Origin: Caballeronia sordidicola
Lineage (GTDB): Bacteria; Pseudomonadota; Gammaproteobacteria; Burkholderiales; Burkholderiaceae
Assembly (NCBI RefSeq): GCF_001544455.2
Contig: NZ_FCOC02000017.1
Location: 62,001 to 126,000, forward strand
Length of the DNA: 64,000 nt
Direction: 5' to 3'
The notes under the pieces are model-generated. The model saw only the letters and a program-made list of their open reading frames with translations. It was not told the DNA's origin and searched no databases. Each line of letters starts with the position of its first letter. The first letter of the stretch is position 1. Positions 47,974 to 57,310 of this stretch are shown here, one piece after another. Both the position numbers and the translations under genes were made by a program.

Positions 47974-48681
47974 ATGGGTCAACGGATAAAAGTCATTATC
48001 GCCGATGACCATCCTGTTATTCTGTTTGGCGCTGCGCAGGCATTGCTGAAATTTCCCGAAATCGAGGTGATTGGACAGGCACGTCAATCCACGGAACTGA
48101 TTCAGCTTCTGCAAAAGTCGCCATGCGATGTGGTGGTGTCGGATCTCGCCATGCCGGGCGGGCAGTACGGTGACGGCATGCCGCTCCTGGGTTATGTTGG
48201 ACGGCAGTTTCCGAATGTACGCATTGTCGTATTGACCATGCTTGAAAACCCGGCGCTGCTCAAACGCTTGCGCGAAGTGGGCGTGACAGCAGTGATCAAC
48301 AAGTCTGATGACCTGAGTCACATCGGTCTTGCAATCGTGCATGTGATGCGTGGCCAGGAATACATCGGGCCGTCGGTTCGGATCGCACTTGACAGCATGG
48401 GCTTGTCCGCAAGCGGCCAGCAACGCGACGTGGTGTTATCCAAACGCGAACTGGAAGTTGTGCGCTTATTTGTATCCGGCATGACAATTACCGAAATAGC
48501 CGCCCAATTGAAGCGAAGCATAAAAACAATCAGTACGCAGAAAAATACCGCCATGCGAAAACTTGGTATTGAAAGGGACTCTGAATTGTTTCAATATGCT
48601 CAAAGCAATGGATTACTCAATCTATCAGCATACGTAGGCGACGGAAATCTGGATGACGCCTTCCCGGTAGATAGTGAATAA
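47974..48681 (+). CDS. RcsB-like response regulator (NarL/FixJ type)
   Basis: A 235-residue two-domain regulator. The receiver domain (about 5-125) has Asp11/Asp12, phosphoacceptor Asp57 in S-D-L-A-M-P-G-G-Q-Y-G-D-G, and V-I-I-A-D-D-H-P at the start, closely paralleling E. coli RcsB. The C-terminal LuxR-type helix-turn-helix (about 150-215) contains E-I-A-x2-L-x-R-S-I-K-T-I-S-x-Q-K, essentially the RcsB recognition helix. No RcsC/RcsD-type kinase is nearby, so it is an orphan here. GAGGGG precedes the ATG and a terminator follows. Likely targets are the adhesin and NlpC/P60 promoters 4-8 kb downstream, which carry RcsAB-box-like sites. Confidence 0.88.
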   Translation: MGQRIKVIIADDHPVILFGAAQALLKFPEIEVIGQARQSTELIQLLQKSPCDVVVSDLAMPGGQYGDGMPLLGYVGRQFPNVRIVVLTMLENPALLKRLREVGVTAVINKSDDLSHIGLAIVHVMRGQEYIGPSVRIALDSMGLSASGQQRDVVLSKRELEVVRLFVSGMTITEIAAQLKRSIKTISTQKNTAMRKLGIERDSELFQYAQSNGLLNLSAYVGDGNLDDAFPVDSE

Positions 48682-51812: not shown

Positions 51813-51855
51813 TAAGAGCGCGCCTATAAAAATCATCGACTTGTCCCAATAAACT
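51813..51855 (+). promoter_or_regulatory. candidate adhesin promoter with RcsAB-box-like element
   Basis: TAAGAGCGCGCCTA (51813-51826) matches the enterobacterial RcsAB box TAAGAATATTCCTA at 9 of 14 positions, including the whole outer TAAGA and CCTA. It directly abuts a non-consensus -35 position (TAAAAA, 51827-51832), then 17 bp, then TAAACT (51850-51855) as a possible -10. The same layout recurs at 56142-56184. Box and promoter are read from sequence; the regulator assignment is inference. Confidence 0.5.
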
Positions 51856-52060
51856 GGATTCTGAAGCGAGTGATGAACAGGCCTGCCTGATCCGATTCAT
51901 CGATTCATTACCCGCCCCACCTAAAGCCGATTAAAAATCCCCGAAGCAGGATAACTCGGTGCCGGTGAAACCTCACTGTATTTAACGCTGATTCGGGCGA
52001 TGCCACGAATCGATCGCTCGTGTGCAGGCACAGCATAAACTTTGGAATCCGAAATTTATT

Positions 52061-55000
52061 ATGAACAAGTCATTTAAATCAGTTTTGAACCGCTCTACGG
52101 GTACTTATGTGGCTGCGAGCGAAAACGTCAAGTCTAGTGGGAAACCGGCTAAGAGCAAGCTCGCCATGAAGGTGGCGTCGGCTTCGCTGGCTGTGAGCGC
52201 ATCGATTGCAATGTTGTCGTCGGGGCATGCGGTGGCGGATGAGAGCGTGCCAGCGAGTGAACAACAGGCGACCATGCCAGACGATGCTACTCGCTCGAAT
52301 TTGACATTGGAGGATGCGGCAACCACGCTGCCTGATGACAGTTCCTCGGCCGCGACTGCTGGAACGGGCAGGAGGCTTCTGGGTTCGTCAATGTTGGGTT
52401 CGCAACTGCTTGGCGCGACGCCGACTGGCGGATCTGTCCTTTACGATGATTCAACGAACAATACCATCACGCTGGTGGGCACCGCGGGTACAAGATTGTC
52501 CAATGTCGCCGCTGGCGTTATATCTGCGACGAGCACGGACGCCGTGAACGGGTCGCAGTTGTATCCTTTCTCGCAAAAGCTTCAAGATGTGAGCTTTGCG
52601 GTTCAAGCTGTAGGAAGCAGCACTTCCGCAAGTGGCCTTACGATGGATAGCGCAGCTACTGCAACAGGGGGAAATTCCATTGCTATTGGGGGAGGTTCAC
52701 TTGCCACTCTAGGGGATGCTACTGCAATTGGAGGGGGGGCATATGGCTCCAACCAGGCGACAGCACTAGGCAGTGGTGCAAATGCTGGCGCGCCCGGCGC
52801 TACGTCGATTGGGTACGGAAGTTCCTTCGGAACCGTCGGCACCTATTCCAGTTCATTGGGTTGGATGGCAAGGGCCCAAGCTGCTAATTCGTCTGCGTTG
52901 GGCGCTACATCGACCGCGTCGGCGACCAGATCGGTCGCGCTCGGGTACGGTTCCGTCGCAAATGTCGCGAATACGGTTTCGGTCGGTACAACAAGCGCGA
53001 CGCGCAAGATTGTGAATGTTACCGCGGGCGATATCTCGTCTTCGACCAGCACGGATGTCGTGAATGGCTCGCAGTTGTACGCGACGAATCAAAACGTGGA
53101 TGCAAACACGACTGCCATTGCCGCAAATACGAGCGACCTCGCGACCAACACAAGCAATATCAGCACGCTAAGCACACAAATTGCCGATGCAGTGAAGTAC
53201 GACAGCACAGCGCACGACACGATCACGCTTGGCGGCACGGGCGGTACGAAGATCACGAACGTAGCAGCGGGTGACATCTCGTCGGCAACTAGCACGGACG
53301 CGGTGAACGGTGCGCAGTTGTATGCGACGAATCAAAACGTAGCTGCGAACACGACTGCCATTGCCACCAACGCGAGCGACATTGCACAAAACACGACCGA
53401 TATCAGCACCATCAACACGCAGGTCGGCACGCTGAACACGCAAATTGCCGGCGCAGTGAAATACGATGGCACAGCACACGATACGATCACGCTTGGCGGC
53501 ACGGCCGGCACGAAGATCACGAACGTGGCAGCGGGCGATATCTCGTCGGCGACCAGCACGGACGCGGTGAACGGCTCGCAGTTGTACGCGACGAATCAAA
53601 ACGTAGCTGCAAACGCGACTGCCATCGCTGCCAACACGAGCGACATTGCGACCAACGCAGCGGCTATCGCCACTAACACAACCGATATCGCGCAGAACAC
53701 GAGCGACATCGGCACCATCAATACGCAAGTCGGCACGCTGAACACGCAAGTTGCCAATGCGGTGAAATACGACGACGCAACTCACGACACGATCACGCTT
53801 GCTGGCACGGCCGGCACGAAGATCACGAACGTAGCAGCGGGCGATATTTCATCGGCTACCAGCACGGATGCGGTGAACGGCTCGCAGTTGTACGCGACGA
53901 ATCAGAACGTGGCCGCAAACACGACTGCCATTGCCACCAACACGAGAGACATTGCGACCAACACCACGGCTATTGCCACCAATGCGAGTAATATCGCCAC
54001 CAACACAGCCGATATCGCACAAAACACGAGCGACATCAGCACCATCAATACGCAAGTTGGCACGCTGAGCACGCAAATTGCCGATGCAGTGAAGTACGAC
54101 GGCACAGCGCACGACACAATCACCCTTGCCGGCACGGCCGGCACGAAGATCGCCAACGTAGCAGCGGGTGATATCTCATCGGCAACCAGCACGGATGCAG
54201 TGAACGGGTCGCAGTTGTACGCGACGAATCAGAACGTGGCCGCAAACGCAACTGCCATTGCCGCCAACACGACTGCCATTGCCACGAACACCAGCAATAT
54301 CAGCACGCTGAACACGCAAATGGCCGATGCCGTCAAATACGACGACACCGAACACGGCTCGATGACGCTCGGCGGTTCGGCTGGCACGGTGATCAAGAAC
54401 GTGGCTGCCGCCCAGATGACTGCGGACAGCACCGAAGCCGTGAATGGTTCGCAATTGTTCGCCGTGCAGCAAAGTGTCAGTGATCAAAGCGCCGCTATCG
54501 CGGACTCGGTCCGCTACGATTCGAGCAGCCACGACAAGATCACGCTTGGCGCTTCGGGAACTCCCGTGGTGCTGACGAACGTGAAGGCAGGGGATGTATC
54601 GGCGAGCAGTCTCGACGCCGTGAACGGTTCGCAGTTGTACGCGGTCACACAGGACGTTGCGCAAAACACCACGGACATTGCTGGCCTGACTGCTTCCATG
54701 AACGATCTGAGCGGCGGTACAACCGGCCTGGTACGTCAGGACGCAACTACCCTGGCGTTGAGCGTCGGCGCCACCACGGGCGGCAGCACAGTCAGCTTTG
54801 CGGGTCTTGACGGCGCACGCGTCCTCAGTGGCGTGGCAAACGGCGCGGTCAACAGCGCCAGTTCGGAAGCGATCAACGGCTCGCAATTGTTCCACGCATC
54901 AGCAAGGACCGCGGCAGCCCTCGGCGGAGGCGCCAGTGTGGATGCCAACGGCGGCGTAACGGCCCCTTCGTACACAGTGGGCGGCAAACAGGTCAGCGAC

Positions 55001-56041
55001 GTGGGCTCCGCCGTCAGCAACCTCGATGACCGTGTCACGCAAAACAGCGCGGACATAGCGAGCGTGAAAGGCGGCCTCGCCGATGTATCGAAGACTGCCG
55101 CGAATGCTGTGGCCTACGATTCAGCCGACCACAACAAGGTCACGCTTGGCGGAACGGACGCAAGCGCCGCCGTCCAGATGACCAACGTGGCTGCAGGCGA
55201 CCTTTCGGCGACGAGCACTGACGCCGTCAACGGCAGCCAGCTTGGAGCGACGAATGCACGCGTTGCGGCAACGGAATCGGCGATTGCCAACTTCGAAGCG
55301 GCGGGCGTGACAGGATTGGCGGGAACAGGGGACGGCTCGGCCGCCATGGGTACGAACTCAAACGCTTCAGGCACCAACTCGACAGCAGCCGGTGCGAATT
55401 CCAATGCCTCGGGTGACGATTCCACTGCAACGGGTGCTTACGCCACGGCTTCCGGCAACAATGCCACGGCAGCCGGCGCACATTCGAGGGCCTCGGGCGA
55501 CGGCTCCGCAGCGTTTGGCGGCAATGCAGCAGCCTCTGGAATCAATGCCATCGCGATTGGCGGCAACTCGCAGGCGTCGGGCAATGGCTCCGCGGCGCTT
55601 GGCGGCAACAGCAGTGCGACGGCCGATAACTCGGTGGCGCTGGGAGCGAACTCGGTTGCCGATGAAGCCAATACCGTGTCGGTCGGATCGGCTGGCAACG
55701 AACGCCGCGTGACAAACGTTGCGCCGGGCGTGAACGGTACGGACGCGACTAACGTGAACCAGTTGAATGCGTTGCGTAATGATGTGAATTCGAGCATGAC
55801 GTCGTTGCAACGCGCTGCGTTTGGTGGCGTCGCGGCAGCCATGGCGATGCCGAACCTGATGCCCAGTTCGCCGGGCAAAACGGTAGTCGGCGCAGGTGTA
55901 GCCAACTACAAGGGCTATAACGCGATTGCTGCCGGCGCCACGTATAGAACCGAAAACAACCGCTGGTTGGTGAACGGCGCGGTATCGGTCACGCAGGGCG
56001 GTGACACCGGCGTACGGGCGCAAGTAGGCTACGAATTCTAA
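52061..56041 (+). CDS. trimeric autotransporter adhesin (YadA/Hia-like)
   Basis: A 1326-residue surface adhesin. The N-terminal ESPR peptide (M-N-K-S-F-K-S-V, about 1-28) and hydrophobic signal (about 38-60) start at 52061; a GTG at 52022 would not give an ESPR. An N-terminal YadA-like head (about 190-315) precedes a stalk. The stalk has five modules at residues 323-783, each with a neck-like D-A-V-N-G-S-Q-L motif and 4, 5, 7, 8 and 4 coiled-coil heptads, then degenerate modules to about 1085. A second head of 14-residue repeats (about 1088-1210) and a C-terminal YadA anchor of about 75 residues ending Y-E-F follow. The anchor trimer forms the pore in the outer membrane. No strong Shine-Dalgarno is seen. 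A terminator follows. Confidence 0.93.
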   Translation: MNKSFKSVLNRSTGTYVAASENVKSSGKPAKSKLAMKVASASLAVSASIAMLSSGHAVADESVPASEQQATMPDDATRSNLTLEDAATTLPDDSSSAATAGTGRRLLGSSMLGSQLLGATPTGGSVLYDDSTNNTITLVGTAGTRLSNVAAGVISATSTDAVNGSQLYPFSQKLQDVSFAVQAVGSSTSASGLTMDSAATATGGNSIAIGGGSLATLGDATAIGGGAYGSNQATALGSGANAGAPGATSIGYGSSFGTVGTYSSSLGWMARAQAANSSALGATSTASATRSVALGYGSVANVANTVSVGTTSATRKIVNVTAGDISSSTSTDVVNGSQLYATNQNVDANTTAIAANTSDLATNTSNISTLSTQIADAVKYDSTAHDTITLGGTGGTKITNVAAGDISSATSTDAVNGAQLYATNQNVAANTTAIATNASDIAQNTTDISTINTQVGTLNTQIAGAVKYDGTAHDTITLGGTAGTKITNVAAGDISSATSTDAVNGSQLYATNQNVAANATAIAANTSDIATNAAAIATNTTDIAQNTSDIGTINTQVGTLNTQVANAVKYDDATHDTITLAGTAGTKITNVAAGDISSATSTDAVNGSQLYATNQNVAANTTAIATNTRDIATNTTAIATNASNIATNTADIAQNTSDISTINTQVGTLSTQIADAVKYDGTAHDTITLAGTAGTKIANVAAGDISSATSTDAVNGSQLYATNQNVAANATAIAANTTAIATNTSNISTLNTQMADAVKYDDTEHGSMTLGGSAGTVIKNVAAAQMTADSTEAVNGSQLFAVQQSVSDQSAAIADSVRYDSSSHDKITLGASGTPVVLTNVKAGDVSASSLDAVNGSQLYAVTQDVAQNTTDIAGLTASMNDLSGGTTGLVRQDATTLALSVGATTGGSTVSFAGLDGARVLSGVANGAVNSASSEAINGSQLFHASARTAAALGGGASVDANGGVTAPSYTVGGKQVSDVGSAVSNLDDRVTQNSADIASVKGGLADVSKTAANAVAYDSADHNKVTLGGTDASAAVQMTNVAAGDLSATSTDAVNGSQLGATNARVAATESAIANFEAAGVTGLAGTGDGSAAMGTNSNASGTNSTAAGANSNASGDDSTATGAYATASGNNATAAGAHSRASGDGSAAFGGNAAASGINAIAIGGNSQASGNGSAALGGNSSATADNSVALGANSVADEANTVSVGSAGNERRVTNVAPGVNGTDATNVNQLNALRNDVNSSMTSLQRAAFGGVAAAMAMPNLMPSSPGKTVVGAGVANYKGYNAIAAGATYRTENNRWLVNGAVSVTQGGDTGVRAQVGYEF
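53027..54409 (+). repeat. five in-frame stalk modules of the adhesin, differing by whole heptads
   Basis: Modules start at 53027, 53270, 53534, 53840 and 54167 with lengths 243, 264, 306, 327 and 243 bases. Each codes for a near-constant 24-residue block (G-D-I-S-S-x-T-S-T-D to Q-N-V), then 4, 5, 7, 8 or 4 heptads of the form A-x-N-T-x-x-I, then a near-constant 29-residue block ending T-x-V-A-A. Length differences are all multiples of 21 bases. DNA identity between modules is high, so recombination can shorten or lengthen the stalk. Confidence 0.92.
55322..55690 (+). repeat. second YadA-type head repeats near the membrane anchor
   Basis: A run of about 14-residue units with the S-x-A-x-G-x-x-S/A pattern (for example G-S-A-A-M-G-T-N-S-N-A-S-G) that fold as left-handed beta-roll heads in YadA-like proteins. 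Here it follows the stalk and directly precedes the neck and C-terminal anchor, unlike simple lollipop adhesins. Confidence 0.85.
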
Positions 56042-56065
56042 AGTCCGCTGTTGCATGAAGTGAAC

Positions 56066-56099
56066 GGGGTAATTCCGACTTGGGAATTACCCCTTTTTT
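56066..56099 (+). terminator. rho-independent terminator after the adhesin
   Basis: GGGGTAATTCC (56066-56076) pairs with GGAATTACCCC (56083-56093), 6-nt loop, then TTTTTT. Confidence 0.93.
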
Positions 56100-56141
56100 C
56101 TGACAGCACTTCAAATCTGTATGTCATACGGGACTTTGCTT

Positions 56142-56184
56142 TAAGAGTAGACCTATCAATATTCCCGTTAAGTCCGAATAGAAT
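56142..56184 (+). promoter_or_regulatory. candidate promoter with RcsAB-box-like element, second copy
   Basis: TAAGAGTAGACCTA (56142-56155) matches TAAGAATATTCCTA at 11 of 14 positions. It abuts a poor -35 position (TCAATA, 56156-56161), then 17 bp, then TAGAAT (56179-56184). This is the same geometry as upstream of the adhesin, and resembles RcsB-activated promoters in enterobacteria where the box touches the -35. It would drive the short ESPR-like ORF and the NlpC/P60 gene. Confidence 0.55.
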
Positions 56185-56405
56185 AGGTTTTGAAGCAAGA
56201 TTGTGACAAAGCGAGACGCACATGCGTTGTGCGTCGTCTTGCTGCTCCGCTATCGGTCAGATGTTGGCTATCCATTTCTTGCTGGATTGGCATTCCCATT
56301 CTGTGCGGATATGCGCGATAGCCAAATTAGGTGCGGTTTCCAAAATATGTTGAATCCGCTGAAATTCACAAAGACTGATAAATATATTAGGAATACGTAT
56401 CAATC

Positions 56406-56576
56406 ATGAAAAGGCAATTTAAATCGTTATTAAATCAGACGACGGTCAAATCTGACGCAGTTGGTGAAAAGACAAGTGTCGGTTTCAAGTTGTTTGAGAG
56501 CAAACGCAGCATTCCTCTCGCTGCACCCGTAAAGACTTCGCGCACAACCGCTTTGCGTTTCTGGTCGTTATCATGA
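56406..56576 (+). pseudogene. 56-codon ESPR-like ORF, remnant of an adhesin-type N-terminus
   Basis: The ORF starts M-K-R-Q-F-K-S-L-L-N-Q-T-T, parallel to the adhesin ESPR M-N-K-S-F-K-S-V-L-N-R-S-T, and the DNA around the start is also alike (both contain ATTTAAATC at the same place). It has no hydrophobic signal core of its own and ends with a TGA that overlaps an ATG of the next frame (ATGA at 56573). It looks like the leading part of a duplicated adhesin-type signal, now separated from the NlpC/P60 frame. It could still act as a leader peptide for translational coupling. Confidence 0.6.
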
Positions 56577-56587
56577 GGCAGGCTGAA

Positions 56588-57310
56588 ATGAATAATCACC
56601 GGTCTTGTGTTGCGCAGCGGAGTTTCGCTGAATCACGCACTCGCATGCCGCAACGAAAAGCACTGTCTGCTCAATTAGTGGCAACAGCGCTCAGCGGTTT
56701 GATTCTGGCTACAGGCTCGGGCGCTGCTTCAGCAACGACTGTAGGGTCAGCGAGTTTCCTCACGCCGGAAAAGGCGCTCGACATGGCGCTTAACGGGGTG
56801 GAGGGTAAGCACACAGTCAACGGCATCATTCAGGTTGGCAAGCCAGTTTCACTCAACGGCGACGCGTTGCTTTATGACCCCACTCAAAAACAGAAGTGGT
56901 CTTCGCAGCAGAATATAGTTGAAGGTGCGCCTGGTTCGCGGCTCTCGGACATTCTTCAAAAAGCCGAAACCATGATTGGGGTTCCCTATTCATGGGGCGG
57001 CAATACACCGGAGCAGGGACTCGATTGCAGCGGTTTTGTGCGCTACGTGTATCAAAAGGCCACGGGTATATTGTTGCCGCGCGTTTCGTCGCAGATCAGC
57101 CGTCAAGGTGTAGCGGTCTCGCAGACGGATTTGCATCCGGGCGATCTCGTGTTTTTCAACACGACTCGCGGCACGGCAACACACGTGGGCATTTATGTCG
57201 GCGAAAATCAATTCATTCATGCGCCGAAAAAGGGTGCATTCGTTCGAATTGAATCGATGAAAAGCGCCTATTGGACCCGGCGATATTACGGGGCGCGCCG
57301 AGTTGCTTGA
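56588..57310 (+). CDS. NlpC/P60-family cell-wall hydrolase
   Basis: A 240-residue exported peptidase that should cut peptidoglycan stem peptides. A signal segment (about 28-50, ending A-S-A-T) is followed by a linker and the C-terminal NlpC/P60 domain (about 120-240). Catalytic residues are Cys147 (D-C-S-G-F), His199 (H-V-G-I-Y-V-G) and His211 (F-I-H-A-P). The start at 56588 has GAGGCAGG upstream; ATGs at 56573 (overlapping the ESPR-like ORF) and 56645 are alternatives. The shared leader with the adhesin suggests coordinated expression, perhaps to open the wall for the large adhesin. A bidirectional terminator follows. Confidence 0.85.
   Translation: MNNHRSCVAQRSFAESRTRMPQRKALSAQLVATALSGLILATGSGAASATTVGSASFLTPEKALDMALNGVEGKHTVNGIIQVGKPVSLNGDALLYDPTQKQKWSSQQNIVEGAPGSRLSDILQKAETMIGVPYSWGGNTPEQGLDCSGFVRYVYQKATGILLPRVSSQISRQGVAVSQTDLHPGDLVFFNTTRGTATHVGIYVGENQFIHAPKKGAFVRIESMKSAYWTRRYYGARRVA

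What the first reader, a model, noticed from the sequence alone, without database searches (positions are those of the whole stretch)
51813..56184. RcsAB-box-like promoters in front of the adhesin and the NlpC/P60 locus, with an RcsB-like regulator 4 kb upstream
TAAGAGCGCGCCTA (51813-51826) and TAAGAGTAGACCTA (56142-56155) match the E. coli RcsAB box TAAGAATATTCCTA at 9 and 11 of 14 positions, with all outer TAAGA and CCTA bases kept. Both boxes abut a poor -35 and are followed after 17 bp by TAAACT or TAGAAT. In enterobacteria RcsB-activated promoters often have this geometry. The window encodes a regulator (47974-48681) with an RcsB-type recognition helix. Together they suggest a surface-adhesion regulon run by an RcsB-like protein outside the enterobacteria. 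The sites and geometry are seen; the regulatory link is inference.
Basis: partly seen in the sequence, partly recalled or inferred. Interest (0 to 1): 0.8.

Follow-up and report, generated by a model that had tools for sequence, protein, structure and literature searches.

The report
RcsB-type promoters driving trimeric adhesin genes
In Caballeronia soil bacteria, several surface-adhesin genes and a cell-wall-cutting enzyme share one promoter design, a binding site of the RcsB type at a fixed distance from the start signal, and a conserved RcsB-like switch protein encoded nearby is the most likely, still untested, controller.

Summary
The two boxes are real: TAAGA-N5-CCTA occurs twice in the window, 0.01 expected. 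Alone, the box is not enriched genome-wide (8 matches, 18 in the reversed control). The signal is the full promoter: box, exactly 23 bp, TANANT.

An exact 43-bp version occurs 13 times in 9 of 58 genus genomes: four before trimeric autotransporter (TAA) genes, nine before a 54-57 aa ORF followed by NlpC/P60. Over 137 TAA upstream regions (75 clusters), a relaxed box plus -10 fits 20 cluster representatives at 23 bp and 0-3 at each of 23 other spacings. So this is a conserved promoter class of several TAA families, also seen in sister genera.

The regulator (47974-48681) is RcsB-like: RcsB is its best family, below the cut-off. It keeps RcsB's base-contacting Lys, with Ser to Thr at the second contact. 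A match of at least 75% identity is listed for 54 of 58 genomes, some partial or broken. That it binds these boxes is inference: three other RcsB-like regulators exist, and the phyletic contrast is not significant (p 0.15).

The parts
47974..48681 (+). RcsB-like response regulator, 235 aa (REC + LuxR/GerE HTH); D57, K110, K184 and T188 stand at RcsB D56, K109, K180 and S184 (numbered by hand from the alignments)
   Evidence: NCBIfam RcsB 184.8 bits vs next 95.3; PDB RcsB E 6e-47; Pfam Response_reg and GerE; residue comparison (contact residues K180 and S184 from PMC5829831 passages)
51813..51826 (+). RcsAB-type box of the adhesin promoter, TAAGAGCGCGCCTA
   Evidence: conserved architecture
51850..51855 (+). 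-10-like hexamer TAAACT, 23 bp after the box (predicted start about 51862)
   Evidence: spacing test; start position is inference
52061..56041 (+). trimeric autotransporter adhesin, 1326 aa, with ESPR signal peptide, YadA stalk, head and anchor
   Evidence: Pfam PF13018, PF05662, PF05658, PF03895 all over cut-off
56142..56155 (+). RcsAB-type box of the small-ORF/NlpC promoter, TAAGAGTAGACCTA
   Evidence: conserved architecture
56179..56184 (+). -10-like hexamer TAGAAT, 23 bp after the box
   Evidence: spacing test
56406..56576 (+). 56-aa ORF with ESPR-like start (MKRQFKSLLN), stop overlapping the NlpC start; found in 9 loci of relatives (54-57 aa)
   Evidence: pairwise differences by codon position 479/306/649 in 8 same-length copies; no Pfam match at E 0.01
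56573..57310 (+). NlpC/P60 peptidoglycan endopeptidase, 245 aa
   Evidence: Pfam PF00877 115.6 bits

Best explanation
The two boxes are activator sites of a conserved class of activator-dependent promoter. In this window the output is one trimeric adhesin and, from a second copy of the promoter, a micro-protein plus a peptidoglycan endopeptidase; in the same genome two other adhesin genes carry the design. Shown: boxes, fixed spacing, conservation, target gene classes, an RcsB-like regulator with the base-contacting Lys. Inferred: binding, activation rather than repression, phosphorylation, the identity of the regulator, and its kinase (a BvgS-like hybrid kinase beside three RcsB-like paralogues elsewhere in the genome is a candidate).
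For: The 43-bp promoter pattern gives 18 sites with up to 2 mismatches in 14 of 58 genus genomes, against 1 for the reversed pattern. All 13 exact sites precede a TAA (4) or the small ORF with an NlpC domain downstream (9). Spacing test: 43 of 90 genus TAA upstreams fit at 23 bp, 0-2 at each other spacing from 16 to 31; by cluster 20 of 75 against 0-3; strict form 23 of 83 against 0 in each of the reversed, reverse-complement and complement controls. Positions not used for selection are kept too: T after the box in 41 of 43 and A at -10 position 4 in 35 of 43 (after taking off the 13 sites whose pattern fixed them; the 43 are not independent). The regulator has 55% HTH identity to E. coli RcsB, keeps K180 and has T for S184; the recognition helix is unchanged in the 4 genus members and 1 sister-genus protein compared. 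In one genome of another genus two RcsB-like regulators flank a TAA gene beside a hybrid kinase.
Against: No binding or expression data. Three other RcsB-like regulators are in the genome, one with K and T at the same two positions. In 10 of 20 fetched neighbourhoods of the regulator no TAA anchor match was found, so it probably has other or additional targets. Of the 11 genomes whose regulator is at least 95% identical (own included), two (G028, G031) have no match to the 43-bp pattern, and no box was seen upstream of G031's small ORF, though both have the relaxed form before another TAA. The contrast between genera with and without the orthologue is not significant by cluster (20 of 55 vs 1 of 11, p 0.15). 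Outside the genus the 43-bp pattern with up to 2 mismatches gives 21 sites in 340 genomes against 10 for the reversed pattern, so there it is little above chance. One reduced genome (G009) keeps a box-like site before an interrupted TAA although no regulator match was found. No box seen before the regulator's own gene. Three of the six ESPR genes of the own genome lack the geometry.
Confidence: 0.55

Rival explanations
1. Same promoter class, different regulator: the boxes are bound by another NarL/FixJ-family regulator, such as one of the three RcsB-like regulators beside the BvgS-like hybrid kinase, or a BvgA-like protein; the regulator at 47974 is only a neighbour.
For: Three RcsB-like regulators lie in tandem elsewhere in the genome next to a hybrid kinase with SBP_bac_3 (two stretches), PAS, HisKA, HATPase and REC; one of them has K and T at the contact positions. 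BvgA sites are also inverted heptamer repeats (PMC2225982 passages). In 10 of 20 fetched neighbourhoods the window regulator has no TAA anchor match beside it.
Against: Of the four, the window regulator has the HTH closest to RcsB (55% vs 43-50%) and is the one linked to two target promoters. Genus g11 has RcsB-like proteins of 44-47% identity, and of its listed matches only G197 (63%) comes nearer; its TAA upstreams are at background (2 of 29; 1 of 11 clusters).
Confidence: 0.3
2. No regulation is implied: the promoter simply travelled with duplicated adhesin 5' ends and is alike by descent.
For: The small ORF before NlpC starts like an ESPR, as if a TAA 5' end had been duplicated; large clusters of alike upstream regions exist (sizes 14, 11, 10).
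Against: Box, spacing and -10 are kept across upstream regions with no detectable similarity otherwise (20 of 75 clusters at 23 bp), while the bases between them vary. G4 and A5 of the box are in 56 of 56 sites although one key position was left free in 43 of them.
Confidence: 0.08
3. The conserved blocks are the two elements of an alternative sigma-factor promoter, not an activator site.
For: Two blocks at an invariant distance, poor -35.
Against: The distance from either half of the box to the -10 (23 bp or more) is longer than two-element sigma promoters allow (general knowledge, no call), and the box is an imperfect inverted repeat with the RcsB half-site TAGGA/TAAGA (half-sites in PMC5829831 passages).
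Confidence: 0.07

Closest known systems
Pseudomonas aeruginosa PA14 RcsB/RcsC/PvrSR controlling cupD fimbriae (PMC3842833, passages seen)
   Same: An RcsB homologue outside the enterobacteria activates an adhesin operon through a site like the RcsAB box, whose GAA bases are needed.
   Different: There the target is a chaperone-usher fimbria on a pathogenicity island with the kinases encoded alongside; here the targets are trimeric autotransporters and a peptidoglycan endopeptidase, the regulator has no kinase among the ORFs seen beside it, and the promoter class recurs in several TAA families.
Enterobacterial Rcs phosphorelay, RcsB homodimer or RcsAB sites (PMC5651002 and PMC5829831, passages seen)
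   Same: Half-sites TAGGA/TAAGA, site just upstream of the -35, RcsB K180 kept in the regulator.
   Different: The regulator is below the RcsB equivalog cut-off, S184 is T, and IgaA is absent from the genus.
Bordetella BvgA/BvgS adhesin control (PMC2225982, passages seen)
   Same: A response regulator (of the same broad family, recalled) activates a large surface protein gene through inverted heptamer repeats; a kinase of BvgS-like domain order exists in this genome (the BvgS comparison is recalled).
   Different: The window regulator matches RcsB best, and here there is one site at a fixed distance from the -10 rather than several. BvgA itself was not compared here.

Membership tests
RcsB (NCBIfam NF008098 equivalog) | best-scoring family is RcsB | tested here: met
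   184.8 bits vs 95.3 for the next; 40 families matched, best 25 shown
RcsB (NCBIfam NF008098 equivalog) | score over the curated equivalog cut-off (235 bits) | tested here: not met
   184.8 bits; so 'RcsB-like', not RcsB
RcsB (NCBIfam NF008098 equivalog) | receiver phospho-site D56 and K109 | tested here: met
   alignment; their role is recalled
RcsB (NCBIfam NF008098 equivalog) | base-contacting K180 and S184 | tested here: inconclusive
   K kept, S replaced by T (residues)
enterobacterial Rcs phosphorelay | IgaA present | tested here: not met
   0 of 58 genus genomes; control rings in E. coli
enterobacterial Rcs phosphorelay | RcsC/RcsD/RcsF/RcsA present | not tested
   -
RcsAB/RcsB box promoter | TRRGA-N4-TCYTA-like site immediately upstream of the -35 position | tested here: met
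   right half looser than in E. coli; usual position from PMC5651002 passages
RcsAB/RcsB box promoter | bound by an RcsB-family protein | not testable with these tools
   -
type Vc trimeric autotransporter adhesin | ESPR, YadA stalk, head and anchor domains | tested here: met
   all over Pfam cut-offs
NlpC/P60 endopeptidase | PF00877 domain | tested here: met
   115.6 bits vs 23

The most novel reading that the evidence does not exclude
Probability: 0.35. Interest if true: 0.72.

Novelty: new variant of a known kind. Interest (0 to 1): 0.6.

Why it matters
As far as I know, little is known of how trimeric adhesins are regulated in environmental Burkholderiaceae. A promoter that can be recognised by sequence would let one predict which of a genome's adhesins are switched together, and with which cell-wall enzyme. 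It would also extend RcsB-type control of adhesion from fimbriae to type V secretion and gives a directly testable regulator-site pair.

Tried and rejected
Box alone as the signal: rejected, because it is not enriched genome-wide. Autoregulation box before the regulator: none seen by eye in 30 aligned upstreams, and the strict pattern is absent from those loci; the clade's conserved CCTATAAT there looks like a -10. A 43-bp weight matrix from the 13 exact sites was too narrow: its best score in 30 other TAA upstreams was 8.7, against about 62 for two true sites that lay in the null set; the wider design appeared only after a dyad count. I first read the g11 gene behind TAGGA-N4-TCCTA as a C39 peptidase; Pfam says M23 for the one scanned. 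19-kb stretches were fetched around three such loci; in the ORFs of 150 aa or more printed for two of them I saw, by eye, no RcsB-like gene. Counts in notebook entries 2 and 3 (14 exact, 19 sites) are wrong; the listing gives 13 and 18. The phyletic contrast was tested and does not reach significance.

Selection: of the ESPR matches (a capped listing), 30 upstreams are the tool's own loci and 60 were picked by me from the listing, the first 40 mostly in order of score, the last 20 by hand (three of them remaining own-genome genes). and parts use 83 of the 90 after dropping 7 near-duplicates. The 20 g20/g13 and 20 g11 regions were picked by genus from the listing; the 27 loci are those newly returned, all outside the genus. 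In one search three clusters hold members of more than one genus and were counted under that of their first member.

Full report
OBSERVATION. TAAGA-N5-CCTA occurs twice in the 64-kb window and in none of 100 shuffles twice. Taken alone the box proves little: the whole genome has 8 such matches against 18 for the reversed pattern, and the symmetrical TARGA-N4-TCYTA has 5 places (10 strand matches) against 14.

WHAT LIES BEHIND THE BOXES. The first box precedes a 1326-aa trimeric autotransporter with all four Pfam parts, ATG at 52061. The second precedes a 56-aa ORF (56406-56576), which begins like the adhesin's extended signal peptide and overlaps the start of an NlpC/P60 endopeptidase. The small ORF was found in 9 loci of relatives with 54-57 codons; among 8 same-length copies pairwise differences fall 479/306/649 on codon positions 1/2/3, so it looks translated. 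It has no Pfam match.

THE PROMOTER IS CONSERVED. In relatives the two boxes belong to a 43-bp pattern TRRGA-N5-CCTAT-N16-TCCNAATANANT. Searched in 58 genus genomes with up to 2 mismatches it gives 18 sites in 14 genomes, against 1 for the reversed pattern. The 13 exact sites, in 9 genomes, stand before a TAA (4) or before the small ORF with an NlpC domain downstream (9) (one genome, G033, has two NlpC copies in tandem). Of the 5 inexact sites, one (G053) precedes another TAA type, one (G009) an interrupted TAA, one (G021) has TAA-like sequence about 1 kb downstream, and two (G004, G023) showed no TAA among the ORFs printed. Two genomes with a regulator at least 95% identical, G028 and G031, have no match. 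In the wider family (398 genomes, the genus included) 35 genomes have a match; the 340 outside the genus give 21 sites against 10 for the reversed pattern.

A WIDER CLASS. I collected 90 upstream regions of ESPR-bearing TAA genes of the genus. A count of spaced tetramer pairs put TAGG...CATT on top, in 18 of 83 regions against at most 11 for any pair in one Markov resampling. The same rule appeared in unlike TAA families: a 14-bp box, 23 bp, then TAnnnT. The strict form is in 23 of 83 regions and in 0, 0 and 0 of the reversed, reverse-complement and complement controls. With one key position free, 43 of 90 fit at 23 bp and 0-2 at each other spacing from 16 to 31. Counting one member per similarity cluster over 137 regions from several genera, 20 of 75 fit at 23 bp and 0-3 at each of 23 other spacings from 12 to 35; strict form 9 against 0-1. 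The consensus of 56 sites is about TAGGA-N4-TCYNAT...TANAGT; the T after the box (41 of 43) and A at the fourth -10 position (35 of 43) were not used to select those 43. In the own genome 3 of the 6 ESPR genes fit (window, C13, C37).

OTHER GENERA. Regions from genera g20 and g13, whose listed regulator matches are mostly 65-72% identical, fit in 7 of 25 (5 of 19 cluster representatives, other spacings at most 1); those of g11, where one listed match reaches 63% and the others 44-47%, fit in 2 of 29 (1 of 11); a mixed rest in 1 of 13. The contrast points the expected way but is not significant by cluster (p 0.15).

THE REGULATOR. The ORF at 47974-48681 is nearest RcsB in NCBIfam and in the PDB, though below the equivalog cut-off. 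In RcsB-DNA crystal structures K180 and S184 make the direct base contacts, in half-sites TTAGGAA and TCTAAGA (PMC5829831, passages). The window protein has K and T there; the helix is identical in the 4 genus relatives and the one g20 protein compared; the three paralogues have R/R, K/A and K/T. A match of at least 75% identity is listed for 54 of 58 genus genomes, several partial, split or with stops; G009, G027 and G045 have none at E 1e-40 and G050 only a 40% match. IgaA is absent (0 of 58). The three paralogues lie in a row beside a hybrid kinase of BvgS-like domain order, a candidate partner. In genome G182 (genus g24) a hybrid kinase, an RcsB-like regulator, a TAA, a second RcsB-like regulator and what reads, by eye, like a usher-chaperone cluster follow one another, which independently ties this regulator type to TAAs; its two regulators have Q at the K180 position, and the box seen before that TAA has no -10 at 23 bp.

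MECHANISM. With a -10 at 51850-51855 the start would be near 51862 and the box would cover about -49 to -36, directly upstream of the -35 position; RcsB homodimer sites usually lie upstream of the -35 (PMC5651002, passages). The -35 positions carry no consensus (TAAAAA, TCAATA). An activator that recruits polymerase from there explains the rigid 23 bp best. Activation, phosphorylation and the identity of the regulator are inferences.

COMPARISON. The nearest described case I found is RcsB of P. aeruginosa PA14 acting on cupD through a site like the RcsAB box in which GAA is essential (PMC3842833, passages). The present case differs in target type (type Vc adhesins and a cell-wall enzyme), in the orphan regulator and in the number of adhesin families sharing the promoter. 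Hence: a new variant of a known kind.

Noticed in passing
L134, L135, L147, L149, L151, L152, L153, L158 (about -400 from the TAA start); own genome G000:C37:1658-1671: Eight of 11 TAA genes of the MNK(S/T)YKSVWNE(S/T)TG kind carry, 163-164 bp upstream of the promoter box, a second and more canonical RcsAB-type box (for example TAAGAATAATCCTA); none of the eight has TAnnnT 23 bp behind it.
   Followed up: partly
L096-L101 (genus g11): TRRGA-N4-TCCTA (near-perfect inverted repeat in most), 23 bp, TACACT in front of an ORF of about 450 aa in six genomes; the one scanned (L097) is an M23 peptidase, again a peptidoglycan hydrolase.
   Followed up: partly
L059:3579-10869 (G000:C2): Three RcsB-like response regulators in a row beside a hybrid kinase with SBP_bac_3 and PAS domains, a BvgS-like layout.
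   Followed up: partly
L291 (G182) and L295:8415-9285 (G188): RcsB-like regulators on both sides of a TAA gene next to a hybrid kinase; and an RcsB-like gene with TAAGAAAAGTCTGA-N23-TATGGT about 220 bp upstream.
   Followed up: partly
window 51859-51870 and 56188-56199: After both -10 hexamers comes TTYTGAAGCRAG, with close forms behind several related promoters (L080, L081, L075, L078); a conserved start of the transcript with no explanation.
   Followed up: no
L107-L110 (genus g10): A TGGGATGTTTCCTAT box-like site in four genomes before a predicted lipoprotein-like ORF; in two of them (L107, L108) the printed ORFs show a response regulator start roughly 0.9 kb downstream.
   Followed up: no
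L066 (G009): A reduced genome with no match to the regulator keeps a box-like promoter (2 mismatches) in front of an interrupted TAA.
   Followed up: no
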